Source: Burkholderia metallica (GTDB lineage Bacteria; Pseudomonadota; Gammaproteobacteria; Burkholderiales; Burkholderiaceae). Taken from it: 64,000 nt of DNA. This document shows positions 8,761 through 58,967 of this stretch, in pieces (position 1 is the stretch's first letter; the number at the start of each line of letters is the position of its first letter). The notes beneath the pieces were generated by a model. The model did not search any database. It had not been told where the DNA came from and worked only from the letters and a program-made list of their open reading frames with translations. The position numbers and the translations under genes were made by a program. The stretch lies in the NCBI RefSeq assembly GCF_902832845.1, contig NZ_CADFDB010000011.1:1-64000 (forward strand), written 5' to 3'.

Positions 8761-8971
8761 CTTCTGCCCTCCATTGATTATTTCGAGACTGGAAATTGCG
8801 CCATCGTAGGGTCAGGCGATCAAGTTCGCAAGTTTCCGCTCGCGGCTGCCCGCTACACTTTGTCGCACGTACCGATTCGTCGCGCACGCGCCGCGTGCGC
8901 CACGTTCGACATCGAACCAGGCCGGGCATGCGCACGTCGCTCCGGCCGATCGCCCCCACTGGAGACACGCC

Positions 8972-10069
8972 ATGCAGATCCCGAACTGGGACAACCCCGT
9001 CGGCACCGACGGCTTCGAATTCATCGAATACACGGCACCGGACCCGAAAGCGCTCGGACAACTGTTCGAACGGATGGGTTTCACCGCGATCGCGCGCCAT
9101 CGCCACAAGGATGTGACGGTCTACCGCCAGGGCGACATCAACTTCATCATCAACGCGGAACCCGACTCGTTCGCGCAGCGCTTCGCGCGCCTGCACGGCC
9201 CGTCGATCTGCGCGATCGCGTTCCGCGTGCAGGACGCCGCGAAGGCGTACAAGCGCGCGCTGGAACTCGGCGCATGGGGCTTCGACAACAAGACGGGCCC
9301 GATGGAGCTGAACATCCCGGCGATCAAGGGCATCGGCGATTCGCTGATCTACTTCGTCGACCGCTGGCGCGGCAAGAACGGCGCGCAGCCGGGCGCGATC
9401 GGCGACATCAGCATCTACGACGTCGACTTCGAGCCGATCGCCGGCGCGAACCCGAACCCGGTCGGCCACGGCCTGACGTACATCGACCATCTGACGCACA
9501 ACGTGCACCGCGGCCGCATGCAGGAATGGGCCGAGTTCTACGAGCGCCTGTTCAACTTCCGCGAAGTGCGCTACTTCGACATCGAAGGCAAGGTGACGGG
9601 CGTGAAGTCGAAGGCGATGACGTCACCGTGCGGCAAGATCCGCATCCCGATCAACGAGGAAGGCTCCGACACGGCCGGCCAGATCCAGGAATACCTCGAC
9701 GCGTATCACGGCGAAGGCATCCAGCACATCGCACTCGGCGCGAGCGACATCTACCAGGCGGTCGACGGCCTGCGCAGCAAGGAAGTGAAGCTGCTCGACA
9801 CGATCGACACGTATTACGAACTGGTCGACCGCCGCGTGCCGAACCACGGCGAATCGCTGGAAGAGCTGAAGAAGCGCAAGATCCTGATCGACGGCGCGCG
9901 CGACGACCTGCTGCTGCAGATCTTCACCGAGAACCAGATCGGGCCGATCTTCTTCGAGATCATCCAGCGCAAGGGCAACCAGGGCTTCGGCGAAGGCAAC
10001 TTCAAGGCGCTGTTCGAATCGATCGAGCTCGACCAGATCCGCCGCGGCGTCGTGCAGGACAAGGCCTGA
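8972..10069 (+). CDS. hpd: 4-hydroxyphenylpyruvate dioxygenase
   Basis: 365-residue Fe(II) dioxygenase that turns 4-hydroxyphenylpyruvate into homogentisate in tyrosine catabolism. Two vicinal-oxygen-chelate halves are present. The metal ligands are recognisable: His in YIDHLTHNV near 173, His in QHIAL near 252 and Glu in FFEII near 328. Length fits bacterial HPPD. A bidirectional terminator follows. It lies between the Lrp regulator and the arylpyruvate oxidoreductase gene, an aromatic amino acid context. Confidence 0.95.
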   Translation: MQIPNWDNPVGTDGFEFIEYTAPDPKALGQLFERMGFTAIARHRHKDVTVYRQGDINFIINAEPDSFAQRFARLHGPSICAIAFRVQDAAKAYKRALELGAWGFDNKTGPMELNIPAIKGIGDSLIYFVDRWRGKNGAQPGAIGDISIYDVDFEPIAGANPNPVGHGLTYIDHLTHNVHRGRMQEWAEFYERLFNFREVRYFDIEGKVTGVKSKAMTSPCGKIRIPINEEGSDTAGQIQEYLDAYHGEGIQHIALGASDIYQAVDGLRSKEVKLLDTIDTYYELVDRRVPNHGESLEELKKRKILIDGARDDLLLQIFTENQIGPIFFEIIQRKGNQGFGEGNFKALFESIELDQIRRGVVQDKA

Positions 10070-10536: not shown

Positions 10537-10726
10537 CTCATCATCACGCTCTCTTTTCTGCCGCGCCACCGCCATTCGATCCGTATCCCGCCCCATGGGC
10601 GGCGGGTTTGCCCCAGTGCTACCATCACTTAAAACCGGCCAATATGCCGGCCACTGCAGACGCATCCACAAGATGGCCGACGCATTCGAGTTTTGGTGAT
10701 CCCAAACTGGGTGGAGGAGACAGTTA

Positions 10727-13700
10727 ATGAATGCCCCGCTAGACGCAGACCAACGCGCGTCGCTGGAAGCCGCGCTGAAGTCCGTCACGCTTGACGACAA
10801 ATACACGCTGGAACGCGGTCGCGCGTACATGAGCGGCATCCAGGCGCTCGTGCGCCTGCCGATGCTCCAGCAGGAACGCGACCGCGCCGCCGGTCTCAAT
10901 ACGGCCGGTTTCATCTCCGGCTACCGCGGCTCGCCGCTCGGCGGCCTCGATCTGTCGCTCTGGAAAGCCAAGCAGCACCTGGCGGCCCACCAGATCGTCT
11001 TTCAGCCCGGCCTCAACGAAGATCTCGCCGCCACCGCCGTGTGGGGCTCGCAGCAGGTGAACCTGTACCCCGGCGCGAAGTACGACGGCGTGTTCGGCAT
11101 GTGGTACGGCAAGGGCCCGGGCGTCGACCGTACCGGCGACGTCTTCAAGCACGCGAATTCGGCCGGCTCGTCGCAGCACGGCGGCGTGCTGGTGCTCGCC
11201 GGCGACGATCACGCGGCGAAATCGTCGACGCTCGCGCACCAGTCCGAACACATCTTCAAGGCTTGCGGGCTGCCCGTGCTGTTCCCGTCCAACGTGCAGG
11301 AATATCTCGATTTCGGCCTGCACGGCTGGGCGATGAGCCGCTACTCGGGCCTGTGGGTCGCGCTCAAGTGCGTGACGGACGTCGTCGAATCGTCGGCCTC
11401 GGTCGACATCGACCCGCATCGCACCGAGATCGTGCTGCCGACGGATTTCATCCTGCCGGAAGGCGGGCTGAACATCCGCTGGCCCGACCCGCCGCTCGTG
11501 CAGGAAGCGCGGCTGCTCGACTACAAGTGGTACGCGGCGCTCGCCTATGTGCGCGCGAACAAGCTCGACCGGATCGAGATCGACTCGCCGAACGCGCGCT
11601 TCGGGATCATGACCGGCGGCAAGGCCTACCTCGACGTGCGCCAGGCGCTGACCGACCTCGGCCTCGACGACGAAACCTGCGCGCGGATCGGCATCCGGCT
11701 CTACAAGGTCGGCTGCGTATGGCCGCTCGAAGCGCAGGGCGCGCAGGCGTTCGCGCGCGGACTCGACGAAATCCTCGTCGTCGAGGAAAAGCGCCAGATC
11801 CTCGAATACGCGATCAAGGAAGAGCTGTACAACTGGCCCGACGGCCAGCGTCCGCGCGTGTTCGGCAAGTTCGACGAGAAGGACGGCGCCGGCGGCGAAT
11901 GGTCGGTGCCGATGGGCAACTGGCTGCTGCCCGCGCACTACGAACTGTCGCCCGCGATCATCGCGAAGGCGATCGCGACGCGCCTCGAGAAGTTCGAGCT
12001 GCCGTCCGACGTGCGCGCGCGCATCGCCGCGCGGCTCGCGGTGATCAACGCGAAGGAAATGGCGCTCGCGAAGCCGCACGTGCAGACGGAGCGCAAGCCG
12101 TGGTTCTGCTCGGGCTGCCCGCACAACACGTCGACCAACGTGCCGGAAGGCTCGCGCGCGATCGCCGGCATCGGCTGCCACTACATGACCGTGTGGATGG
12201 ACCGCAGTACGAGCACCTTCAGCCAGATGGGCGGCGAGGGCGTGCCGTGGATCGGCCAGGCGCCGTTCACGGACGAGAAGCACGTGTTCGCGAACCTCGG
12301 CGACGGCACCTACTTCCACTCGGGCCTGCTGGCCGTGCGCGCGGCGATTTCGTCGAAGGCGAACATCACGTACAAGATCCTGTACAACGACGCGGTCGCG
12401 ATGACGGGCGGCCAGCCGGTCGACGGCGTGCTGACGGTGCCGCAGATCACGCACCAGCTCGCGTCCGAAGGCGCGAAGAAGATCGTGATCGTCACCGACG
12501 AGCCGGAGAAATACGACAGCCAGAAGGCGCTGCTCGCGCCGGGCGTGACGATCCATCACCGCGACCAGCTCGACGACGTGCAGCGCGAGCTGCGCGAGAT
12601 CGAAGGCACGACGATCCTGATCTACGACCAGACCTGCGCGACCGAGAAGCGCCGCCGCCGCAAACGCGGGACGTATCCGGACCCGGCCAAGCGCGTCGTG
12701 ATCAACGACGCGGTGTGCGAAGGCTGCGGCGACTGCTCGGTGCAGTCGAACTGCCTGTCGGTCGAGCCGCTGGAAACCGAATTCGGCACGAAGCGCCAGA
12801 TCAACCAGTCGAGCTGCAACAAGGATTTCTCGTGCGTGAAGGGCTTTTGCCCGAGCTTCGTCACGGTCGAGGGCGGCCAGTTGAAGAAGCCGAAGGCCGT
12901 GTCGGTCGACGGCAGCGCGCTGCCGCCGATCCCTGAACCGACGCTGCCCGACATCGACCGCGCGTACGGCGTGCTCGTCACGGGCGTCGGCGGCACGGGC
13001 GTCGTCACGATCGGCGCGCTGCTCGGGATGGCCGCGCACCTGGAAAACAAGGGCGTGACCGTGCTCGACGTCACCGGCCTCGCGCAGAAAGGCGGCGCCG
13101 TGATGAGCCACGTGCAGATTTCGCACGCGCCGACCGACATCCACGCGACGCGGATCGCGATGGGCGAAGCCGACCTCGTGATCGGCTGCGACGCGATCGT
13201 CACGGCCGGCGACGAATGCACGTCGCGCATGCGCCATGACGCGACGCGCGTGGTGGTCAATAGCGCGCAGACGCCGACCGCCGAGTTCATCAAGAACCCG
13301 AACTGGGCGTTCCCGGGCCTGTCCGCCGAGAACGACATCCGCGCGGCGGCGGGTGACGCCGTCGACTTCATCGACGCGAACCGTTTCGCGGTCGCGCTGC
13401 TCGGCGACGCGATCTACACGAACCCGTTTGTGCTCGGCTACGCGTGGCAGAAAGGCTGGCTGCCGCTCACGCTCGCGTCGCTCGAACGCGCGATCGAGCT
13501 GAATGCGGTGTCGGTCGAGAAGAACCGCGCGGCCTTCGACTGGGGCCGCCGCGCCGCGCACGACCTGGCGAGCGTGAAGCAGGCCGCGGCCGGCGACGCA
13601 CGCCCCGCGCAGGGCGCCACGGTGATCGCGCTGCACACGAAGAAAGCGGTCGATGCGCTGATCGCGAAGCGCGTGGAATTCCTCACCGCGTACCAGAATG

Positions 13701-14314
13701 CCGCGTACGCAGCCCGCTATGCGGCGTTCGTCGACAAGGTGCGCGCCGCCGAACGTGCGCTGGCGGACGGCGACACGATGCAGGAGCCGCTGACCGAAGC
13801 AGTCGCGCGCAACTTGTTCAAGCTGATGGCGTACAAGGACGAATACGAGGTCGCGCGGCTGCAATCCGATCCGGCGTTCCTCGCCCGCCTTGCCGCACAG
13901 TTCGAAGGCGACTGGAAGCTGAAATTCCACCTCGCGCCGCCGCTGTTCGCGAAGACGGACGCGCACGGCCATCTCGTGAAGAAGGCGTACGGCCCGTGGA
14001 TGATGTCGGCGTTCCGGCTGCTCGCGAAGGCGAAGTTCCTGCGCGGCACGGGGCTCGATCCGTTCGGCCGGACCGAGGAGCGTCGCACCGAGCGCGCGCT
14101 GATCGGCGAGTACGAAGCGCTGATCGACGAAGTGACGGCCAGGCTGAACGCGGCCAACCGCCCGCTCGCACTCGAGCTCGCGGCGCTGCCGGACGGCATT
14201 CGCGGCTACGGCCACGTGAAGGAGAACAACCTGCGGGCGGTGCGCCAGAAGTGGGACACGCTGCTCGCGAAGTGGCGTTCGCCGGCAGGCCAGTCGCACC
14301 AGCAGGTCGCGTAA
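10727..14314 (+). CDS. fused indolepyruvate ferredoxin oxidoreductase
   Basis: 1195-residue single-chain 2-oxoacid:acceptor oxidoreductase joining IorA-like and IorB-like parts; it oxidatively decarboxylates arylpyruvates to aryl-acyl-CoA. An N-terminal thiamine-diphosphate region comes first. Cysteine motifs follow: CSGCPHNTS near 461, CEGCGDC near 664 and CNKDFSCVKGFCPSF near 697. The gamma domain has GVGGTGVVTIGALLG near 753. The product phenylacetyl-CoA or 4-hydroxyphenylacetyl-CoA would feed paa-type pathways. The ribosome binding site TGGAGGAGACAG (10712-10723) is perfectly complementary to the putative sRNA at 24739-24799, suggesting translational repression. Confidence 0.92.
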   Translation: MNAPLDADQRASLEAALKSVTLDDKYTLERGRAYMSGIQALVRLPMLQQERDRAAGLNTAGFISGYRGSPLGGLDLSLWKAKQHLAAHQIVFQPGLNEDLAATAVWGSQQVNLYPGAKYDGVFGMWYGKGPGVDRTGDVFKHANSAGSSQHGGVLVLAGDDHAAKSSTLAHQSEHIFKACGLPVLFPSNVQEYLDFGLHGWAMSRYSGLWVALKCVTDVVESSASVDIDPHRTEIVLPTDFILPEGGLNIRWPDPPLVQEARLLDYKWYAALAYVRANKLDRIEIDSPNARFGIMTGGKAYLDVRQALTDLGLDDETCARIGIRLYKVGCVWPLEAQGAQAFARGLDEILVVEEKRQILEYAIKEELYNWPDGQRPRVFGKFDEKDGAGGEWSVPMGNWLLPAHYELSPAIIAKAIATRLEKFELPSDVRARIAARLAVINAKEMALAKPHVQTERKPWFCSGCPHNTSTNVPEGSRAIAGIGCHYMTVWMDRSTSTFSQMGGEGVPWIGQAPFTDEKHVFANLGDGTYFHSGLLAVRAAISSKANITYKILYNDAVAMTGGQPVDGVLTVPQITHQLASEGAKKIVIVTDEPEKYDSQKALLAPGVTIHHRDQLDDVQRELREIEGTTILIYDQTCATEKRRRRKRGTYPDPAKRVVINDAVCEGCGDCSVQSNCLSVEPLETEFGTKRQINQSSCNKDFSCVKGFCPSFVTVEGGQLKKPKAVSVDGSALPPIPEPTLPDIDRAYGVLVTGVGGTGVVTIGALLGMAAHLENKGVTVLDVTGLAQKGGAVMSHVQISHAPTDIHATRIAMGEADLVIGCDAIVTAGDECTSRMRHDATRVVVNSAQTPTAEFIKNPNWAFPGLSAENDIRAAAGDAVDFIDANRFAVALLGDAIYTNPFVLGYAWQKGWLPLTLASLERAIELNAVSVEKNRAAFDWGRRAAHDLASVKQAAAGDARPAQGATVIALHTKKAVDALIAKRVEFLTAYQNAAYAARYAAFVDKVRAAERALADGDTMQEPLTEAVARNLFKLMAYKDEYEVARLQSDPAFLARLAAQFEGDWKLKFHLAPPLFAKTDAHGHLVKKAYGPWMMSAFRLLAKAKFLRGTGLDPFGRTEERRTERALIGEYEALIDEVTARLNAANRPLALELAALPDGIRGYGHVKENNLRAVRQKWDTLLAKWRSPAGQSHQQVA

Positions 14315-21036: not shown

Positions 21037-22452
21037 ATGTCGCACGCCTTAACGAAGGGGGTGGCAACGGCCTTTGCCATTGCCCCTTTCCTGGTTGCAT
21101 GTGGTGGGGGGGACTCCGGCGGCGCACTCGCGCCGATCGATGCGCCCCAATGTTCAGGTTCCAGCTGCGGCACGCAAGGGCCGCCGCCGTCGCAGCCCGT
21201 CAACGGCGCGCTGTGCCCGGCCACCGCGGACATCGTGAAGAGCACGTACCTCGGCGGCGCCGGTAGCGGCGAGATCGTCAGCGTCAACATCGACGCCGTG
21301 GCGATGACCTACACGCTCAAGTGGCTCGAATCGCCGATTCCGCTCGCGACCGGCACCGTTACGCCGAGCCGCGCCGGCACGACGATCACCGGCAAGGTCG
21401 TCCATCCGCCGGCCGGCACGCTGCCGACCGCAGAACAAACGCGCTGCGCATTCGTCCTCACACCGGGCACCGGCACCGCGCCGAACGGCTCGACCTATTC
21501 GACGGCCGCCGACTTCAACCAGGCGAACCCGCCGATGCTGCTGGTCGGCATGGGCGTCGCGGGCGGCGGCATTCCGGGCGCGACGATCCAGTACGACGGG
21601 CTGACGATCATCCCGGGCATCGTGCAAAACGTCGGCCAGGTGCCCAATCGCCACTTCGATTTCTATCCGTTCCTCGGCTTCGCGAGCACGACGACGGACA
21701 TCTCGAAGCTGCCGGGCACGTACAACGCACTGATCTACCACCTCGTGCCGTCGGGCAACTACGCGACGAAGGGGACGAACTCGAGCGAGACGTTCGATGC
21801 GAACGGCGCGTGCACGTCGACAGGTTCGGGCGGCTGCCAGACGACCGGCAACCCATGGACCGTGAACACCGCGAACGGCGGCTACTTCGACAGCACGAAG
21901 GCGCCGCAGACGCTGCCGCAAACGTCGCTGCCGATCGTCGGCGCGACCGGCAAGTCGGCGACCGCGCACATGGTGATCGGCCAACTCAACGGCGCGACGG
22001 TGCCGGTGATCGTGCGCACGGGCAACGTGAACCTCGGCACGCCGCCGCTGCACACCGACGCGCAGGTCGACGACGAATCGGGCATCGCGGTGCTCGGCAG
22101 TGCCACCGCGATCCAGTCGGGCGCGATTGACGGCGGCTACGCGGGCGCGGACTCGAACTTCAAGTACACGGCTGCGCTGATCCGCGGCAGCAACGCATCG
22201 TTCATCAATCCGAGTACGCAGGCCGAGGAAGACGGCTTCACGCTCGACTACGGCCAGACGACGCCGGGGCTGCTCAACGCGACGACGATTCCGAAGAGCG
22301 GTAGCGCCGCGTCGGGCGTCGTGATCGCGACGGGCGGGCTGTACGCGGCGCTGATCCAGGGCACGGTGAATGGCGGCGTGACGTCGACGTCCGCGAATTC
22401 GACGACGTCGTCGACCCCGTACTTCGGCGTGGGCGCGCAGATCAGCAAGTAA
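21037..22452 (+). CDS. DUF2957-type lipoprotein, first paralogue
   Basis: 471 residues with a lipoprotein signal: hydrophobic run, then lipobox LVAC with the cysteine at residue 22, followed by a Gly/Ser/Pro-rich linker. The mature part is a repetitive beta-rich domain found almost only in Burkholderiaceae (DUF2957). Conserved blocks are LCPAT near 59, GGAGSGE near 73, LLVGMGVAGGGIPG near 168 and DDESGIAVLG near 348. No catalytic motif is seen. It is followed by a paralogue and an OmpW gene, suggesting a shared envelope role. Function unknown. Confidence 0.8.
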   Translation: MSHALTKGVATAFAIAPFLVACGGGDSGGALAPIDAPQCSGSSCGTQGPPPSQPVNGALCPATADIVKSTYLGGAGSGEIVSVNIDAVAMTYTLKWLESPIPLATGTVTPSRAGTTITGKVVHPPAGTLPTAEQTRCAFVLTPGTGTAPNGSTYSTAADFNQANPPMLLVGMGVAGGGIPGATIQYDGLTIIPGIVQNVGQVPNRHFDFYPFLGFASTTTDISKLPGTYNALIYHLVPSGNYATKGTNSSETFDANGACTSTGSGGCQTTGNPWTVNTANGGYFDSTKAPQTLPQTSLPIVGATGKSATAHMVIGQLNGATVPVIVRTGNVNLGTPPLHTDAQVDDESGIAVLGSATAIQSGAIDGGYAGADSNFKYTAALIRGSNASFINPSTQAEEDGFTLDYGQTTPGLLNATTIPKSGSAASGVVIATGGLYAALIQGTVNGGVTSTSANSTTSSTPYFGVGAQISK

Positions 22453-22598
22453 CGAGGACGCGGCGGCGGCCGGCCCGCCGCCGCGTGATGCAGGGAAGGC
22501 ACGAAAGCGCTCGGCACGGCGCAAGCAGGACGAGCACAAGCAACAGAAGCGGCCGACAGGGAGCTGGCCGCCGTACAAGACAAATCTGGAGGAGCAAC

Positions 22599-23840
22599 AT
22601 GAAGCGCAACCTCATTCTGGCGGCGGCCCTTGCCGCCCCCCTTCTTTCCGCATGCGGCGGCGGCAGCGACAATCCGCCTCCGCTCGTCGAAGACCGGCTC
22701 TGCCCTGCCACGCTCGACTACAACACCGTGTTTACGGGCGGCGCGGGCAGCGGCGAACTCGCGAAGGTCCAGCTCGACACGACCAAGATGACCTGGCAGA
22801 TCACCTATGTCGAATCGGCGGTGCCGCAAAAGACCGGCACCGTCGTGCCGACCCGCGCGGGCACGGTCGACAGCGGCACGCTCACGCAGGAAACGCTGCT
22901 GCCGACCAACAAGCTGAACCAGTGCGCGTTCCGGCTGAACGGCGCGAGCCTCGATGCGTCGCGTCCGGCGCGCATCTTCGTCGGCTTCGGCGTCGCGGGC
23001 GGCACGATTCCCGGCAAGGAGATCCAGTTCGACGGCGTGCTCGGCCAGGCCGCGGTGCCCGACACGAAATTCCCGTACTACCCGTTCATCGGCTTCTCGT
23101 CGATCGAAACCGACATCACGAAGGTCGCGGGCACGTACAGCCACATCGGCTTCGGCGAAGTGCCGTCGCAGAAATTCGCGCCCGCGTCGATCGACGCGAA
23201 GGTGACGATCAACGCGGACGGCACGTGGACCAAGTGCGACACGACCGGCCAGTTCGCCGGCGGCGCGTGCACGCAGCAAGGCACGAACTTCGTGCAGTCG
23301 GCCGACGGCAGCGGCGCGTTCCAGTCGAACAACTACGCGAGCCAGCTGAAGCCGACGCTGTCGGCGACGCCGCAGGGCAAGGGCTTCATGATCGTCGGCA
23401 AGCTGCGCAACCAGTTGGTGCCGATCCTCGTGCGCACGGGTGTCGCGAACCCGAACCCGACGCCGGACAGCAACGGCGTGCCGGGCCTGACCGCCGACGA
23501 CGAATCGAGCATCTCGATCCTCGCGCCGCAGACGGCAGTGGCAGTCGGTTCGCAGAACGGCGAATACATCGGCGTCGACAGCCAGTTCGATTACCGGACC
23601 ACCGCGCTGACCGACAAGCAGGCCACGCTGCTCGATCCGTTCCAGCCGTCGCAGGCGTCGCTCGCGACCGCGCTCGATCTCGACTACACGCAGAAGGTGC
23701 CGGGCACGGTCACGACGATCCACACGGGTTCGGGCAGCACGTCGCCGACCGGCAAGTTCATCTTCACGGGTGGCGTGTTCGGTTTCCTCGACAACGCGGG
23801 ATCGACGCCGTATTTCACGATCGGCGCATTCGTCCAGTAA
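22599..23840 (+). CDS. DUF2957-type lipoprotein, second paralogue
   Basis: 413 residues, clearly related to the gene 146 bp upstream: both share LCPAT, TGGAGSGEL, the CAF(R/V)L block, GVAGG.IPG and DDESSISIL in the same order. The lipobox LSAC places the lipidated cysteine near residue 19, followed by GGGS. The first paralogue carries insertions in its middle third that this copy lacks. A TGGAGGAGC ribosome binding site fixes ATG 22599. It is 15 bp from the OmpW gene, so they are probably translated together. Function unknown. Confidence 0.8.
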   Translation: MKRNLILAAALAAPLLSACGGGSDNPPPLVEDRLCPATLDYNTVFTGGAGSGELAKVQLDTTKMTWQITYVESAVPQKTGTVVPTRAGTVDSGTLTQETLLPTNKLNQCAFRLNGASLDASRPARIFVGFGVAGGTIPGKEIQFDGVLGQAAVPDTKFPYYPFIGFSSIETDITKVAGTYSHIGFGEVPSQKFAPASIDAKVTINADGTWTKCDTTGQFAGGACTQQGTNFVQSADGSGAFQSNNYASQLKPTLSATPQGKGFMIVGKLRNQLVPILVRTGVANPNPTPDSNGVPGLTADDESSISILAPQTAVAVGSQNGEYIGVDSQFDYRTTALTDKQATLLDPFQPSQASLATALDLDYTQKVPGTVTTIHTGSGSTSPTGKFIFTGGVFGFLDNAGSTPYFTIGAFVQ

Positions 23841-23855: not shown

Positions 23856-24692
23856 GTGATCAAGAAAACCCTTCTCTGCGCGGCAGCCGGCGCCGCCGTC
23901 GCGGTGCCGTTCGCGGCGCACGCGCAGAGCGCCGGCAGCAACGTCGTCACGCTGGGCTGGTTCCACATCATGCCGCAGCAGAGCAGCACGCCGATGACGA
24001 CCAACGTCGCGCCGACGCCGATCAACACGCCGCTGCGGCTGCCGCCGTCGTTCACGTCGCCGGGCACCGGGCTGCACACCAGCGGCGCGGATACGGTCGG
24101 CCTGACGGTCAGTCACTTCCTGACCGACCACATCGCGGTCACGTCGGTGGCCGGCGTGCCGCCGGTGTTCAAGGTGTCCGGCCAGGGCACGATCAAGCCG
24201 CCCGGCCCGGCCGGCGCGCTGGGCACGCAGAACATCGCGCTCGCGTCGGTCAACCCGATCGTGAAGAGCGTGCGGCAGTGGAGCCCGGCGATGATCCTGC
24301 AGTACTACTTCGGGCAGGCAAACGCGAAGTTCCGGCCGTTCCTCGGCCTCGGCGTGTCGTACAACTGGTTCAGCGACCTGCAGCTCAACACGAACTTCAT
24401 CAAGCAGACGCAGGACAACCTCGGCGCGGTGCTCGCGGCGGGCGCGGGCAAGCCGGGTACGACGTCGGTGGAGGCGAAGGCGTCGTCGTCGTGGCAGCCG
24501 GTGTTCAACGCGGGCCTGCAGTACAACATGACGGAACACTTCGGGCTGGTCGCGTCGGTCACCTACATCCCGCTGAAGACGACGTCGACGGTGACGATCA
24601 AGGCGGCCGACGGCACGGTGCTCTCGGAGTCGAAATCGGACCTGAAGGCGGACCCGATCATCAGCTACGTCGGGATGACGTACAAGTTCTGA
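23856..24692 (+). CDS. OmpW-family outer membrane protein
   Basis: 278 residues starting at GTG 23856 behind GGAGGGTGAGG. The signal peptide ends AAHAQS near residue 23. An eight-stranded small barrel is predicted from alternating patterns; the C-terminus YVGMTYKF ends in the aromatic residue needed for barrel assembly. Family marks include GLTVSHFLTDHIAV near 81-94 and FGQANAKFRPFLGLGVSYNWF near 150-170. OmpW proteins form narrow hydrophobic channels. The close link to two DUF2957 lipoproteins suggests one surface system. Confidence 0.88.
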   Translation: MIKKTLLCAAAGAAVAVPFAAHAQSAGSNVVTLGWFHIMPQQSSTPMTTNVAPTPINTPLRLPPSFTSPGTGLHTSGADTVGLTVSHFLTDHIAVTSVAGVPPVFKVSGQGTIKPPGPAGALGTQNIALASVNPIVKSVRQWSPAMILQYYFGQANAKFRPFLGLGVSYNWFSDLQLNTNFIKQTQDNLGAVLAAGAGKPGTTSVEAKASSSWQPVFNAGLQYNMTEHFGLVASVTYIPLKTTSTVTIKAADGTVLSESKSDLKADPIISYVGMTYKF

Positions 24693-24738
24693 GCGCGGCG
24701 AGCGCCGGCGAATGGAACGCTGCGACACAATCGCAGGC

Positions 24739-24800
24739 AAAAAAAAGCCCGCCTAAGAGGCGGGCTGAATCCATATCAGAGGAGACATGGAGGAGACAGG
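24739..24800 (-). ncRNA. putative small RNA with two anti-Shine-Dalgarno repeats
   Basis: A transcript of about 60 nt read from the minus strand. It contains UGUCUCCUC twice (plus-strand GAGGAGACA at 24779-24787 and 24790-24798, 11 bp apart). It ends in a rho-independent terminator: AGCCCGCCT/AGGCGGGCT stem (24746-24754 with 24758-24766) then eight U. The repeats are complementary to ribosome binding sites of the GGAGGAGACA kind. Two such sites occur in this window (10713-10722 and 36806-36815). It resembles CU-rich riboregulators reported in B. cenocepacia (I recall ncS27), but the identity is not verified. It has no start codon with a usable frame. Confidence 0.75.
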
Positions 24801-24804
24801 TACA

Positions 24805-24833
24805 ACTATAGCGAATCGATTTCTGCATTGCAA
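24805..24833 (-). promoter_or_regulatory. sigma70 promoter of the putative sRNA
   Basis: On the minus strand: -35 TTGCAA (24828-24833), exactly 17 bp, then -10 TATAGT (24805-24810). Initiation about 7 bp downstream, near 24798-24800, would place the first anti-Shine-Dalgarno repeat at the very 5' end of the RNA. Confidence 0.75.
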
Positions 24834-24884
24834 CATTTCCGTAGAGAAAATAAGGATTTTCCCTCGAATGTCGCCTCTAGATCG

Positions 24885-25073
24885 CTAGTCCGAACCCGAC
24901 CCCTTCAGGATCTCCCGCTCGAGCACCGCGCCGAGCGCATCGCGCAGCAGCGCGACGGGCCGCACCAGCCGGCCCGGCAGCGCGCCGTGCACGATCCACA
25001 CGTTGATCCGCGTCTCCAGCCCCACCGTTTCCACCACCCTCAGCGCATCGCGATGCGCGCTGCGCGCCAGCGC
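24885..25073 (-). pseudogene. C-terminal remnant of a LysR-type regulator
   Basis: The minus-strand frame ending at 24885 reads as the tail of a LysR effector domain: RINVWIVHG followed by RPVALLRDALGAVLERE, the usual W-[LI]-V then final-helix pattern. Homology is lost upstream of about 25073, where the frame becomes Ala/Pro-rich noise, so about five sixths of the gene, including the helix-turn-helix, is missing. It abuts the tail of an MFS gene on the other strand. Moderate confidence because the match is short. Confidence 0.45.
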
Positions 25074-25074
25074 G

Positions 25075-25188
25075 CTCGGCGCGGCGCTGGCGGGCAGCGC
25101 GTGGGCCTCGGGCGGGTGGAGCGCGGTGTGCGGCGTCGGCTTCGCGTTCGCCGGCGCGGCTGCCGTATTCGGGTTGCGCGTTGCGTAA
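25075..25188 (+). pseudogene. C-terminal remnant of an MFS transporter
   Basis: The plus-strand frame reads about 37 residues resembling the last membrane helix of an MFS exporter (GSAWASGGWSAVCGVG, then a hydrophobic Ala/Phe/Val stretch and a short basic end). It stops at 25188. Nothing upstream in this frame continues the protein, and the LysR tail begins on the other strand. A divergent LysR/MFS pair that lost everything between the two C-terminal ends would leave exactly this. Short match, so tentative. Confidence 0.45.
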
Positions 25189-25278
25189 CGCCAGCTCGCG
25201 GCCGGGCACCGGGCCGGCGCGGCGACATCGACGGGCCCGAGCACGTAACGTCCGCGCCGCGAAGCAGCCGCCCAAAGC

Positions 25279-25315
25279 CGAACGCCCCGCCCTCTGGCGA
25301 GGGACGGGGCGTTCG
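25279..25315. terminator. strong hairpin after the LysE-type gene
   Basis: An 11-bp stem (25279-25289 with 25305-25315) lies just past the end of the exporter gene. There is no T run on either side, so termination is possible but not assured. Confidence 0.45.
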
Positions 25316-25337
25316 ATACGCGGGATTCAGCGTGAAA

Positions 25338-25979
25338 TCAGTGACGGACCAGCGCCATCATCGCGCCGAAGCCGACGAACAGCCCGCCCGTCAGCCGGTT
25401 GAAGATCTTCGCGACGCTCTGGCTCTTCAGCGTCGCGCCGATGCGCGTGCCGAACGACGCGTAGACGAGATACCAGCTCACCTCGATCACCGCGAACGTG
25501 ACCACGAGGACGCCGAACTGCGGCAGCGTCGGCTCGGCCGCGTTGATGAACTGCGGCAGCAGCGCGGCCGCGAACAGGATCGCCTTCGGGTTGCTGCCCG
25601 CGACCAGGAAACCGTTGCGGAACAGCGTCCCGCGAGACGCCGGCGCGGCCTGGCGCGACACGGTGTCGACGTCGGCGGCGGGCTGCTCGTCGTCGACGCG
25701 CGCGCGCCACGCCTTCACGCCGAGGTAGATCAGGTAGGCCGCGCCCGCGAAGCGCAGCGTGTTGAACATCGCCGGCCACGCCTCGAGCACCGCGCCGAGG
25801 CCCGCCGCGGACACCGACAGCATCAGCACCAGCGCGGTGAGGCAGCCGGCCATCGTCCACATGGAGCGGCGCAGCCCGTGCCGTGCGCCGTGCGTCATCA
25901 CGAGCAGCATGTTCGGGCCCGGAATCGCCGACACGACGAACACCGTCGCCACGAAAAGCCACCACGTATGCAAGTTCAT
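25338..25979 (-). CDS. LysE/RhtB-family amino acid exporter
   Basis: 213 residues and about six membrane helices. The N-terminal SAIPGPNMLLVMTHGARHG motif (17-35) is the family signature, with YLIYLGVKAWR near 82-92 and GFLVAGSNPKAILF near 122-135 lining the transport path. Members export homoserine, threonine, lysine or related compounds; the substrate here is open. The stop is followed by a hairpin. It is transcribed in the same direction as the dehydrogenase gene 76 bp upstream and could share its message. Confidence 0.9.
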   Translation of the reverse strand: MNLHTWWLFVATVFVVSAIPGPNMLLVMTHGARHGLRRSMWTMAGCLTALVLMLSVSAAGLGAVLEAWPAMFNTLRFAGAAYLIYLGVKAWRARVDDEQPAADVDTVSRQAAPASRGTLFRNGFLVAGSNPKAILFAAALLPQFINAAEPTLPQFGVLVVTFAVIEVSWYLVYASFGTRIGATLKSQSVAKIFNRLTGGLFVGFGAMMALVRH

Positions 25980-36606: not shown

Positions 36607-36819
36607 CCGGTTCGCGCCCGATCGATCGATTCAAATGCTGAATCGATCAAGTCAGCAATTGGCATGAAAGCGCAAATTTCGACATGACAGAATGGCCCGG
36701 GCGCCCTGCCTGCATCGGCGCCCGGGGCCGGCCCGAACCGGCGGCACCCACACACATCACGCGCGCATCGACGCGCCTGCCGCACGGCGGCACCTTCCGC
36801 CCTTCGGAGGAGACAAGTC

Positions 36820-38160
36820 ATGAATCCGCTTCACGCGCTGCCGGCGTCCGCGTCGGCAACGGCCCGGCGCACCCGCGTGCGCTGGCTCGTGCTGGCCGTC
36901 CTGTTCGCGGTCACGACGATCAACTACGCGGATCGCGCGGCGATCGCGATCGCCGGCCCGAGCCTCGCCCGCGCAATGCACCTGAGCCACGTGCAGATCG
37001 GCTTCATCTTCTCCGCGTTCGGCTGGTCGTACGTGCTCGCGCAACTGCCGGGCGGCTGGCTGCTCGACCGCTACGGTTCGCGCATCGTCTACGCGTTCAG
37101 CATCTTCTTCTGGTCGCTCTTCACGCTGCTGCAGGGTTCGATCGGCTTCTTCGGCGGCGCGGCCGCGTTCGCGCTGCTGTTCGGGCTGCGCTTCCTGGTC
37201 GGCGCGGCCGAGGCGCCGTCGTTCCCGGCCAACAGCCGGATCGTGTCCGCGTGGTTCCCGGCCGCCGAGCGCGGCACCGCGTCGGCGATCTTCAACGCCG
37301 CGCAGTACGCGGCGACCGTCGTGTTCGCGCCGCTGATGGGCTGGCTCGTGCACGCGTTCGGCTGGCAGTCGGTGTTCGCGGTGATGGGCGTGCTCGGCTT
37401 CGCGTTCGTCCTCGTGTGGAACCGCACGATATACGACCCGAAGGATCATCCGAACATCAATCGCGCGGAGCTCGACTACCTCGCCGAAGGCGGCGCGCTC
37501 GTCAACATCGACCAGGCGACCGGCGAACGCGCCGGCGGCCCGTCGCTGCGCCACGTGAAGGCGCTGCTGCGCAACCGGATGCTGGTGGGCGTGTACGTCG
37601 CACAATACTGCATCAACGCGCTCACCTATTTCTTCATCACGTGGTTTCCCGTCTATCTCGTGCAGGCGCGCGGGATGTCGATCCTCAACGCGGGGCTCGT
37701 CGCGTCGATCCCGGCCGTGTGCGGGTTCCTCGGCGGGATACTCGGCGGCGTCGTGTCCGACGGGCTGCTCAAGCAGGGCCGCTCGCTGTCGGTCGCGCGC
37801 AAGGTGCCGATCGTGGTCGGCATGCTGCTGTCGATGTCGATGATCGTCTGCAACTACACCGATTCGCACGTGCTCGTCGTGCTGTTCATGGCGCTGTCGT
37901 TCTTCGGCAAGGGACTCGGCGCGCTCGGCTGGGCCGTCAACGCCGACACCGCGCCGCGCCAGATTGCGGGCCTGAGCGGTGCGCTGCTCAACACGTGCGG
38001 CAACCTCTCCAGCATCACGACGCCGATCGCGATCGGCTACATCGTCGAGCGCAGCGGCTCGTTCAACGGCGCGCTCGTCTACGTCGTCGCGCACGCGCTC
38101 GTCGCCGTGATCTGCTACCTGTTCGTCGTCGGCGAGATCCGCCGCGTCGAGCTTCAATGA
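36820..38160 (+). CDS. gudP: glucarate/galactarate MFS transporter
   Basis: 446 residues, 12 membrane helices, anion:cation symporter family. Marks are [22 protein letters not shown] near 28-49 and [16 protein letters not shown] near 72-87 (MFS motif A variant). Position in front of gudD gives the substrate. GGAGGAGACA at 36806-36815 serves as the ribosome binding site and is a perfect 10-base match to the anti-Shine-Dalgarno repeat of the putative sRNA at 24739-24799, hinting at post-transcriptional repression. Confidence 0.9.
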
Positions 38161-38222: not shown

Positions 38223-39620
38223 ATGCCAGAATCCCGCCGTGCCGGCACCCCGCGCGTCACGCGCATGCAGGTGATTCCCGTCGCCGGCCGCGACAGCATG
38301 CTGCTCAACCTGTGCGGCGCGCACGCGCCGTACTTCACGCGCAACCTCGTGATTCTCGACGACAGCAGCGGACACACCGGGGTCGGCGAAGTGCCGGGCG
38401 GCGAAGGCATCCGCCACGCACTCGAACGCATGACGGATCTCGTGGTCGGCCAGTCGATCGGACGCTACCAGGCAACGCTCAACGCCGTGCGCGCGGCGCT
38501 CTCCGGCGCGCAGGCCGGCGCGGGCCGCACGATCCGGCACGAAGTGACGTCGGCCGGCGAGGCGGCCGTGCTGCGCCAGCCGCACGAGATCAACCTGCGG
38601 CTCGACAACGTGATCACCGCGATCGAGGCGGCGCTGCTCGACCTGCTCGGCCAGCATCTCGACGTGCCGGTCGCCGCGCTGCTCGGCGAAGGACAGCAGC
38701 GCGACGCGGTGCCGATGCTCGCCTATCTGTTCTACGTCGGCGACCGGCGCCGCACCGATCTGCCGTATCGCGACGAGATGCACGCCGCGCATGCGTGGTT
38801 CCGGCTGCGCAACGAGGAAGCGCTCACGCCGGCCGCGATCGCACGGCAGGCAGAGGCCGCGGTCGAGCGCTACGGCTTCGCCGATTTCAAGCTGAAGGGC
38901 GGCGTGATGGCCGGCGCCGACGAGATGGAGGCGATCGCCGCGATCAAGGCGCGCTTCCCCGACGCGCGCGCGACGCTCGACCCGAACGGCGCGTGGTCGC
39001 TCGACGAAGCCGTTGCGCTGTGCCGCGGACAAGGCCACCTGCTCGCGTATGCGGAAGATCCGTGCGGGCCGGAAGGCGGGTATTCGGGCCGCGAGGTGAT
39101 GGCCGAATTCCGTCGCGCGACGGGCATCCCGACCGCGACCAACATGATCGCGACCGACTGGCGGCAGATGGATCATGCGGTGCGGCTGCAGGCGGTCGAC
39201 ATCCCGCTCGCCGATCCGCATTTCTGGACGATGCAGGGCTCGGTGCGGCTCGCGCAGCTGTGCCGCGACTGGGGGCTCACGTGGGGCTCGCATTCGAACA
39301 ACCATTTCGACGTGTCGCTCGCGATGTTCACGCATGCGGCGGCCGCCGCGCCCGGCACGATCACCGCGATCGACACGCACTGGATCTGGCAGGAAGGCGA
39401 TGCGCGGCTCACGCGCGAGCCGCTCGAGATCGTCGGCGGCAAGGTGGCCGTGCCGGAGCGGCCGGGGCTCGGGATCGAACTCGACATCACGCAGGTCGAG
39501 GCCGCGCATGCGCTTTACCGGGAAGTCGGCGGCACCGCGCGCGACGATGCGGCCGCGATGCGCTATCTCGTGCCGGGGTGGACGTACGATCCGAAGCGGC
39601 CGAGTTTCGGGCGGGGGTGA
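38223..39620 (+). CDS. gudD: D-glucarate dehydratase
   Basis: 465-residue enolase-superfamily enzyme turning D-glucarate into 5-keto-4-deoxyglucarate. It aligns with E. coli GudD almost throughout: [20 protein letters not shown] near 19-38, FKLKGG near 221 (catalytic lysine), DPNGAWSL near 249 (metal ligand) and [11 protein letters not shown] near 356 (catalytic histidine). Start 38223 is preferred for its AGGAGCG; an ATG at 38157 overlapping the gudP stop would add 22 residues without homology. No later glucarate genes follow. Confidence 0.95.
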
Positions 39621-39873: not shown

Positions 39874-39949
<76 letters not shown>

Positions 39950-57322: not shown

Positions 57323-58741
57323 TCAGTAGCGGTAGTGGTTCGGCTTGAACGGGCCGTCCTTCTGCACGCCGATGTACGCGGCCTGCTCGTCCGACAGCAC
57401 GGACAGGTTCGCGCCGATGCGCGCGAGGTGCAGGCGCGCGACCTTTTCATCGAGGTGCTTCGGCAGCACGTACACCTTGTTCTCGTACTCGCTGCCGCGC
57501 ACGAACAGCTCGATCTGCGCGAGCGTCTGGTTCGCGAACGAGTTCGACATCACGAACGACGGGTGGCCGGTCGCGCAGCCGAGGTTCACGAGGCGGCCTT
57601 CCGCCAGCAGGATCACGCGCTTGCCGTCCGGGAAGATGATGTGGTCGACCTGCGGCTTGATGTTTTCCCACTGGTACTGGCGCGTCGACGCAACGTCGAT
57701 TTCCGAGTCGAAGTGGCCGATGTTGCAGACGATCGCGTTGTGGCGCATCGCCTTCATGTGATCGTGGTTGATCACGTGGTAGTTGCCGGTCGCCGTCACG
57801 AAGATGTCGGCCTTGTCGGCCGCGTATTCCATCGTCACGACGCGGTAGCCTTCCATCGCCGCCTGCAGCGCGCAGATCGGGTCGATTTCGGTGACCCACA
57901 CGGTCGCGCCCAGGCCGCGCAGCGACTGCGCGCAGCCCTTGCCCACGTCGCCGTAGCCCGCGACGACCGCGACCTTGCCCGCGATCATCACGTCGGTCGC
58001 GCGCTTGATGCCGTCGACCAGCGATTCACGGCAGCCGTACAGGTTGTCGAACTTCGACTTCGTGACCGAATCGTTCACGTTGAATGCCGGGAACGGCAGG
58101 CGGCCGTCCTTTTCCATCTGGTACAGGCGGTGCACGCCGGTCGTGGTTTCTTCGGTCACGCCCTTGATGTGCGCGAGGCGCGTCGAGTACCAGGTCGGGT
58201 CCGCGTCGAGGTGCTTCGCGATCGACTTGTACAGCGCGACTTCTTCCTCGTTGGTCGGCTTCGCGATCACCGAACGGTCCTTCTCGGCCTTCGCGCCGAG
58301 GATCAGCAGCAGCGTGGCGTCGCCGCCGTCGTCCAGGATCATGTTCGCGAATTCGCCGTTCGGCCATTCGAAGATGCGGTGCGAGAACTCCCAGTATTCG
58401 TCGAGCGATTCGCCCTTGAACGCGAACACCGGCGTGCCGGCTTCGACGATCGCGGCAGCCGCGTGGTCCTGCGTCGAGAAGATGTTGCACGACGCCCAGC
58501 GGACGTCCGCGCCGAGCGCCTTCAGCGTCTCGATCAGCACGCCCGTCTGGATCGTCATGTGCAGCGAGCCGGCAATGCGCGCGCCCTTCAGCGGCTGCTG
58601 CGCCTTGTATTCGTCGCGGATCTGCACGAGGCCCGGCATTTCGGTCTCGGCGATGTTCAGTTCCTTGCGGCCCCAGCCGGCCAGCGCCATGTCGGCGACG
58701 ACGTAATCCTGGGAAGCCTTGGAATCGATAATGGCGTTCAT
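57323..58741 (-). CDS. ahcY: S-adenosylhomocysteinase
   Basis: 472 residues. It hydrolyses S-adenosylhomocysteine to adenosine and homocysteine, removing the inhibitor of methyltransferases. Landmarks are GSLHMTIQT near 59-67, [21 protein letters not shown] near 221-241 (catalytic Lys/Asp), the NAD loop [15 protein letters not shown] near 260-274 and the C-terminal KPNHYRY that closes the NAD site. Includes the about 40-residue insert of the long bacterial form. Start 58741 follows AAAGGAGGG; a GTG one codon upstream is possible. An SAH riboswitch precedes it. Confidence 0.97.
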
Positions 58742-58778
58742 CACGCCCTCCTTTCTAAAAAGTTTCTAGATTGGTGAC

Positions 58779-58887
58779 GTGAGCGCCGTTCAGGAAGCGG
58801 AGCCGGCGCGGTTGTGCCGCACGACTGCTTGGTGAAGCCTTCCGAGCCTGGCGGACACAGGAGGTCCGTCGCAACGCTCCTCGGAAA
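58779..58887 (-). promoter_or_regulatory. SAH riboswitch of the ahcY operon
   Basis: Read on the minus strand, the leader has the conserved strands of the S-adenosylhomocysteine riboswitch in order: CCGAGGAGCGTTGCGACGG near 58866-58884, then CCAGGCTCGG near 58842-58851, then GAACGGCGCTCAC near 58779-58791. The CCGAG/CTCGG pair forms the P1-like helix, and GAGCG can pair with CGCTC for the pseudoknot. It switches ahcY on when SAH accumulates. A -10 box TACAAT is at 58897-58902, placing the transcript start near 58890. Confidence 0.88.
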
Positions 58888-58967
58888 ACGGAGGGGATTG
58901 TAGCAAATCGGCGCGCGAAATGCGCATGCGCCGCGCGGCATCGGCGCGCGCGGGCGTCAAGAAAGGG

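What the first reader, a model, noticed from the sequence alone, without database searches (positions are those of the whole stretch)
24739..24833. Unannotated sRNA with duplicated anti-Shine-Dalgarno motifs and in-window targets
Seen: a near-consensus minus-strand promoter (TTGCAA, 17 bp, TATAGT), a RNA of about 60 nt carrying UGUCUCCUC twice, and a terminator with eight U. Two genes in the same window have ribosome binding sites that are perfect complements: the indolepyruvate oxidoreductase (12 bases, 10712-10723) and gudP (10 bases, 36806-36815). This predicts a riboregulator that shuts off carbon-catabolic genes by masking their start regions. I recall a CU-rich Burkholderia sRNA, ncS27, with a carbon-use role; identity is not verified.
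Basis: partly seen in the sequence, partly recalled or inferred. Interest (0 to 1): 0.78.

Follow-up and report, generated by a model that had tools for sequence, protein, structure and literature searches.

The report
Known Burkholderia double-hairpin regulatory RNA
The short RNA gene is real and strongly conserved, but it belongs to an already catalogued family of Burkholderia regulatory RNAs that are thought to turn down nutrient-use genes by covering the ribosome's landing site.

Summary
In detail: a minus-strand promoter, a ~60-nt RNA with UGUCUCCUC twice, a terminator, and exact complements at the ribosome-binding sites of the indolepyruvate oxidoreductase (12 nt) and gudP (10 nt). It is not new. 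It matches Rfam RF02278 (76.5 bits, cut-off 50). By gene order, neighbours and length it is the orthologue of B. cenocepacia ncS03, one of four published "double-hairpin RNAs". There are five matches in the genome. A 40-nt core is identical in 119 stretches of other genomes (capped scan). RBS masking of uptake and catabolic genes is already published for the family, and a galactonate transporter, probably this gudP, is a published predicted target. New details, all computational: the indolepyruvate site fits the ncS27-type paralogue better (14 nt; twice in 7.55 Mb, once as that sRNA's own antisense); GGAGACA is over-used before ATG in this genus; across the order this usage is weakly associated with strong sRNA matches. 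Against a specific regulon, a decoy test on 385 starts was not significant. Ordinary find; only the genome-wide seed/RBS pattern is worth following.

The parts
24828..24833 (-). -35 hexamer TTGCAA; TTGC is the conserved part
   Evidence: the four TTGC columns are 96-100% conserved over 118 aligned sequences (window included), the last two about 50%
24805..24810 (-). -10 hexamer TATAGT
   Evidence: columns 71-97% conserved over the same 118
24739..24799 (-). double-hairpin sRNA, RF02278 member, ncS03-type; start at about 24799 inferred from the promoter
   Evidence: Rfam 76.5 bits for 24739-24798; fold
24790..24798 (-). seed copy 1 UGUCUCCUC; the first eight RNA bases (CUGUCUCC) are single-stranded
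   Evidence: UGUCUCCUCC identical in four of the five copies of the genome
24779..24787 (-). seed copy 2 UGUCUCCUC; UCCUCU in the hairpin loop, the rest in the stem
24770..24791 (-). hairpin 1
24739..24766 (-). intrinsic terminator, 9 pairs then U tract
23856..24692 (+). OmpW-family gene, convergent neighbour
   Evidence: PF03922; convergent and within 75-295 nt of the sRNA start in 80 of 119 loci
25338..25979 (-). LysE-type exporter, upstream on the same strand
   Evidence: PF01810; upstream on the same strand, 80-5241 nt away, in 78 of 119 loci
10709..10723 (+). RBS of the indolepyruvate oxidoreductase gene: 12-nt complement to this sRNA (10712-10723), 14-nt complement to the ncS27-type paralogue (10709-10722)
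10727..14314 (+). indolepyruvate ferredoxin oxidoreductase family gene, candidate target
   Evidence: NF009588
36806..36815 (+). RBS of gudP, 10-nt complement, kept in 10 of 10 relatives
36820..38160 (+). gudP-like MFS transporter (D-galactonate transporter subfamily), candidate target
   Evidence: TIGR00893; a glucarate dehydratase-like gene (TIGR03247, under its cut-off) follows at 38223
8961..8967 (+). GGAGACA at the RBS of 4-hydroxyphenylpyruvate dioxygenase (8972-10069), weaker candidate target
   Evidence: GGAGACA kept in 10 of 10 relatives, duplex rank only 156 of 385

Best explanation
The locus is the orthologue of B. cenocepacia ncS03, one of several copies of the RF02278 family ('Betaproteobacteria toxic sRNA', 'double-hairpin RNA'). 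From its own sigma-70 promoter it makes a ~60-nt RNA. The free 5' end (UGUCUCC...) and the first hairpin loop (UCCUCU) pair with GGAG(GAG)ACA-type ribosome-binding sites, probably with Hfq, and block translation of uptake and catabolic genes in trans. The family shares one seed, so the copies share many targets, but each has a slightly different second half, which can favour individual targets (the ncS27-type copy for the indolepyruvate oxidoreductase). Shown here: gene anatomy, family, orthology, conservation, complementarity. Shown by others for relatives: expression, growth effect of ncS27, repression by Bordetella S17. Inferred: repression of gudP or the indolepyruvate oxidoreductase by this copy, Hfq dependence in this strain, physiological cue.
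For: Rfam match 76.5 bits, cut-off 50. Five matches in this genome, four over the cut-off; 4 to 7 in each of the 25 same-genus genomes searched, this one included. 40-nt identical core in 119 stretches; OmpW and/or LysE in the expected place and orientation in 91 of 119, neither in 28. Promoter and terminator conserved over 118 aligned sequences. Order SAH riboswitch - galactonate transporter - sRNA in the window agrees with BCAL0145 - BCAL0184 - ncS03 (BCAL0197/0198) in J2315. The C3 copy lies by rpsI and the C1 copy by a luxI-type gene, as expected for ncS27 and ncS62. gudP RBS 10-mer kept in 10 of 10 relatives; indolepyruvate site keeps 13-14 nt to the ncS27 type in 10 of 10. Duplex rank: indolepyruvate 4 (tied), gudP 9 of 385 starts. 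GGAGACA-N2-9-ATG: 209 matches in the genome against 10 for the reversed pattern.
Against: No transcript data for this strain were available. Decoy sRNAs with the anti-SD cores fixed do as well: 9-nt matches in 7 genes against mean 4.75, 230 of 1000 decoys at least as many; at 7 and 8 nt also not significant. RBS conservation in these close relatives is generally high: 9 of 21 GGAGNNN sites are identical in all ten, 7 of the 18 that are not candidate targets. The full 12-nt indolepyruvate match is kept in only 4 of 10. 16S pairing alone explains the GGAG part of every site.
Confidence: 0.8

Rival explanations
1. The RNA is a true RF02278 member, but gudP and the indolepyruvate oxidoreductase are not its real targets: the matches are ordinary strong Shine-Dalgarno sequences of this genus, which resemble any anti-SD RNA.
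For: Decoy test not significant; GGAG-type RBS are often fully conserved (9 of 21); GGAGAC-type RBS are common (32 of 171 GGAGNNN sites are GGAGACN).
Against: 10- and 12-nt matches are rare: GGAGGAGACA-N2-9-ATG occurs 7 times in the genome, and the 14-mer at the indolepyruvate site twice, one being the ncS27-type gene itself. A galactonate transporter is a published predicted target.
Confidence: 0.25
2. General anti-SD decoy: the RNA mimics the 3' end of 16S rRNA and slows translation broadly (the 'toxic' reading) rather than acting on chosen genes.
For: The family was named for toxicity in E. coli (PMC4603805, PMC5688073 passages); overexpressed ncS27 slows growth.
Against: The letters UGU before the anti-SD core are the same in four of the five copies though 16S mimicry does not need them; overexpressed Bordetella S17 did not impair exponential growth of E. 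coli, and its deletion raises a limited gene set; a review reports substrate-specific growth effects of ncS27.
Confidence: 0.12
3. The transcript acts on its convergent neighbour OmpW (stop at 24692) by antisense or terminator effects.
For: The convergent OmpW neighbour is conserved in 80 of 119 loci.
Against: The RNA ends at 24739, 46 nt short of the OmpW stop codon, so it does not overlap the coding sequence; the other copies of the genome have other neighbours.
Confidence: 0.04

Closest known systems
ncS03 of B. cenocepacia J2315 (RF02278)
   Same: Family, length (58-59 nt against 60-61), orientation pattern -> -> <-, gene order with the SAH riboswitch and the galactonate transporter
   Different: Nothing of substance seen; the J2315 sequence itself was not compared, only a B. 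cenocepacia NCTC13227 contig that holds the identical 40-nt core with OmpW beside it (L102)
ncS27 of B. cenocepacia (RF02278)
   Same: Same family and same UGUCUCCUCC seed (in the ncS27-type copy of this genome); proposed role in carbon use
   Different: 92-nt primary transcript that is processed; different second half; lies elsewhere in this genome (C3:438120, next to rpsI)
S17 of Bordetella pertussis
   Same: 5' seed and first loop pair with RBS; transporters and a sigma-54 activator among targets
   Different: 190-nt primary RNA cut by RNase E to 67 nt; not toxic to E. coli in exponential growth
RF02278 RNAs of Herbaspirillum seropedicae (Hsnc059, 063, 086, 107)
   Same: Four family members in one genome (PMC7011215, passages)
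   Different: Other family of the order; function not tested there
NmsR sRNAs of Neisseria
   Same: Two CU-rich unpaired stretches against RBS of metabolic genes (as described in PMC5688073)
   Different: Tandem copies, TCA-cycle targets; no sequence comparison made here
Rhizobial 'cuckoo' sRNAs (CCUCCUCCC motif)
   Same: Anti-SD motif RNAs (known from a search listing only, and recall)
   Different: Alphaproteobacterial, different sequence; works-like resemblance only

Membership tests
RF02278 Betaproteobacteria_toxic_sRNA | Covariance model score at or over the gathering score | tested here: met
   76.5 bits against 50, whole model 1-64
RF02278 Betaproteobacteria_toxic_sRNA | Two hairpins, the second a terminator with U tract, CU-rich unpaired stretches | tested here: met
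RF02278 Betaproteobacteria_toxic_sRNA | Toxic to E. coli when cloned | not testable with these tools
   reported for family members, as cited in PMC4603805 and PMC5688073; original paper not held
RF02278 Betaproteobacteria_toxic_sRNA | Expressed as short transcript | not testable with these tools
   no RNA-seq in the tools; shown for J2315 homologues
ncS03 orthologue | Same gene neighbourhood and order | tested here: met
   OmpW and/or LysE in place in 91 of 119 loci; order SAH riboswitch - galactonate transporter - sRNA as in J2315 locus numbers. The identity of BCAL0197/0198 themselves was not checked.
ncS03 orthologue | 58-59 nt transcript with its own promoter | tested here: inconclusive
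   60-61 nt inferred from promoter and terminator; no transcript data
ncS27 | Location between BCAL3348a and BCAL3349, near a ribosomal protein gene; longer primary transcript | tested here: not met
   The copy next to rpsI is C3:438120 (L003), not this one
Hfq-dependent trans-acting repressor | Hfq binding and repression of target mRNAs | not testable with these tools
   shown for Bordetella S17

The most novel reading that the evidence does not exclude
In these bacteria GGAGACA is a code word at start sites: some 200 start-like sites of the genome, in a sample largely before uptake and catabolic genes, carry an RBS tuned to the near-invariant UGUCUCC seed of a five-member sRNA family, so that the family works as a global post-transcriptional brake on nutrient use, with each paralogue's variable second half giving private targets (ncS27-type copy with the indolepyruvate oxidoreductase).
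Probability: 0.35. Interest if true: 0.5.

Novelty: already known. Interest (0 to 1): 0.25.

Why it matters
As a locus it is ordinary: it adds one annotated orthologue and corrects the recalled identity. If the wider pattern held, it would give a testable rule (RBS extension ACA after GGAG) for reading a carbon-use regulon directly from Burkholderiales genomes, and would help explain why several near-identical copies are kept.

Tried and rejected
Identity as ncS27: rejected by location.

Specific enrichment of complements at starts: the decoy test on 385 predicted starts gave no significance at 7, 8 or 9 nt (528, 243 and 230 of 1000 decoys at or above the observed count). Gene starts come from my own simple caller, not from annotation.

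Conservation of the in-window sites as proof: rejected, since 9 of 21 GGAGNNN RBS are identical in all ten relatives.

Clustering of 2 of 7 GGAGGAGACA starts in the window: noted, but chosen after the fact.

Functional contrast: of 14 sampled genes with GGAGACA upstream, 12 look like uptake/catabolism by my own unblinded reading of family names, one is a sigma-54 activator and one a predicted metal hydrolase. Of 20 random other-GGAG genes (drawn from the 133, those crossing a stretch end left out) 9 clearly do, up to 12 with doubtful ones. Fisher p is 0.03 with 9 and 0.14 with 12. Of 18 GGAGAC[CGT] genes about 10 do. Suggestive only.

Order-wide association of GGAGACA usage with the sRNA: 136 of 150 genomes kept (14 with too few counts dropped). 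Strong matches (E under 1e-8) 55 genomes, mean ratio 0.174; none, 44 genomes, mean 0.128; one-sided Mann-Whitney p 0.005; partial correlation given genome size r 0.25, p 0.003. Against it: genomes with weak matches (37, mean 0.104) are not higher than none (p 0.91), family means give p 0.06 and within-family deviations p 0.07, so relatedness is not excluded.

The full papers on ncS27 (Microbiology 2019) and on the toxic genes (Genome Res 2012) are not held; their content is known only through citing papers.

Full report
What is there. On the minus strand, 24833-24805 holds TTGCAA-17-TATAGT, the one sigma-70-like site the scan found in 24000-25500. The RNA runs from about 24799 to 24739 and folds into two hairpins, the second an intrinsic terminator; -28.2 kcal/mol, z -7.27, no shuffle of 200 as stable. 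Unpaired are the first eight bases CUGUCUCC, the loop UCCUCU of hairpin 1 and a short linker. The matches to the indolepyruvate oxidoreductase RBS (TGGAGGAGACAG, 10712-10723) and the gudP RBS (GGAGGAGACA, 36806-36815) are exact, and no other exact match of 9 nt or more to the first 30 nt exists in the window outside the gene itself.

What it is. Rfam gives RF02278, Betaproteobacteria_toxic_sRNA, 76.5 bits against a cut-off of 50, over the full model. The genome has five matches: this one, C6:29172, C3:438120 and C1:529655 over the cut-off, and C16:98020 at 42.5 bits under it. All 25 same-genus genomes searched (own included) have 4 to 7 matches; 35 of 41 genomes of the relatives set have at least one and 31 have one over the cut-off. 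In an order-wide sample 99 of 150 have a match at E up to 0.001 and 59 of 150 one over the cut-off. OmpW lies convergent and within 75-295 nt in 80 of the 119, LysE upstream on the same strand in 78, both in 67, neither in 28; a short flank can explain 7 of these 28. Over 118 aligned sequences, the window included, the -35 letters TTGC are 96-100% conserved, the -10 columns 71-97%, about half of the spacer columns 80% or more, and the columns upstream of -38 32-70%; the terminator hairpin with U tract is found in 116 of 118.

Which copy. In J2315 the four published members are ncS03 (BCAL0197/0198), ncS05, ncS27 (BCAL3348a/3349) and ncS62 near cepI (PMC4603805, passages; PMC5688073, passages and two sections). 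The window has the SAH riboswitch at 58774, a D-galactonate-type transporter at 36820 and the sRNA at 24739, the same order as BCAL0145, BCAL0184 and ncS03. The C3 copy lies by rpsI and the C1 copy by a luxI-type gene, as ncS27 and ncS62 should. That gudP equals BCAL0184 is inferred from order and family name.

Is the function known. For the family in B. cenocepacia: RBS-overlapping predicted interactions; predicted targets in uptake and metabolism of carbon compounds, including a galactonate transporter (BCAL0184); growth slowed by ncS27 overexpression and raised by its silencing (PMC5688073). A review says ncS27 affects phenylalanine/tyrosine catabolism and carbohydrate transport (PMC10987360, passages). 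Bordetella S17, with nearly the same seed, represses a sigma-54 activator directly, and 70 of 91 genes raised by its deletion (92 in the abstract) carry complements at or near the RBS (PMC11722255, abstract, passages and two sections). A Tn-seq study lists ncS03 and ncS27 as genes whose disruption is favoured in two host models (PMC12013268, passages). A search for papers with at least three of the terms ncS27, indolepyruvate, hydroxyphenylpyruvate dioxygenase and small RNA found none in the held library, which does not contain the main ncS27 paper.

Targets tested here. In ten relatives the gudP 10-mer is kept in 10 of 10, with a spacer to ATG of varying length; GGAGACA before 4-hydroxyphenylpyruvate dioxygenase is kept in 10 of 10 with changing flanks; the indolepyruvate 12-mer is kept in 4 of 10, the other six having one changed letter. 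But 9 of 21 GGAGNNN RBS of the window are kept in all ten, 7 of the 18 that are not these candidates, so this alone proves little. The indolepyruvate site reads GGGTGGAGGAGACA, 14 nt complementary to the ncS27-type copy; the 14-mer occurs twice in 7.55 Mb, once being the antisense of that sRNA gene, and 13 or 14 nt of it are kept in 10 of 10 relatives. It is the longest match of the ncS27-type RNA among 385 predicted starts, the next being 10 nt. By duplex energy the indolepyruvate start ranks 4 (tied) and gudP 9 of 385 for this RNA, while the dioxygenase ranks 156 (no accessibility term).

Against a special regulon: sRNA decoys that keep the anti-SD cores and shuffle the other letters reach similar numbers of matching starts. 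For it: after GGAG in the 22 nt upstream of 385 starts the commonest triplet is ACA, 14 of 171, then ACG with 10, and GGAGACA-N2-9-ATG has 209 matches in the genome (a few share one GGAGACA) against 10 for the reversed pattern. Relative to all A/C triplets after GGAG, and after subtraction of controls, the share of ACA is 0.33 in this genome and 0.24 to 0.39, mean 0.31, over the 25 same-genus genomes. Across 136 of 150 order genomes it is higher where RF02278 matches strongly (0.174, n 55) than where it is absent (0.128, n 44), p 0.005, but weak-match genomes (0.104, n 37) are not higher, and family-level and within-family tests are only p 0.06 and 0.07. I count this as a lead, not a result.

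Mechanism. Most likely the free 5' end and first loop pair with GGAG(GAG)ACA ribosome-binding sites and block initiation in trans. Steps shown here: the RNA gene's anatomy, its family and its complementarity. Steps shown elsewhere for relatives: expression, growth effect, direct repression of one target. Steps inferred: repression of the window's own candidates by this copy.

Verdict. A real, well conserved, already catalogued sRNA.

Noticed in passing
window 58774-58888 (-): SAH riboswitch (RF01057, 56.9 bits) just upstream of the gene called at 57323-58741; published for BCAL0145 in J2315.
   Followed up: partly
window 39877-39949 (-): tRNA gene (RF00005, 61.2 bits).
   Followed up: no
L005 (G000:C16:98020-98088): Fifth homologue under the Rfam cut-off (42.5 bits). 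Each of the 25 same-genus genomes lists a match of 35-45 bits, though it was not shown that these are the same locus. The papers read name four copies in J2315 and speak of three to five per genome.
   Followed up: partly
window 24825-24836 (-): Conserved ATGTTGC-N3-GC block over the -35 (columns 91-100%), partly shared by the C6 copy (ATATTGCGTCGC): possible regulator site. The 2017 paper mentions an upstream motif common to three copies.
   Followed up: partly
window 24739-24796 (-): Sub-threshold match to RF02837 anti-hemB (32 bits, cut-off 49.5): the two Burkholderia RNA families may be distantly related, or share only the terminator.
   Followed up: no
window 24885-25244 (-): 119-aa open frame just upstream of the sRNA promoter without Pfam match; possibly a gene remnant or not a gene.
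   Followed up: no
window 21037-23840 (+): Two adjacent predicted genes upstream of the OmpW-family gene look alike by eye, probably tandem paralogues.
   Followed up: no
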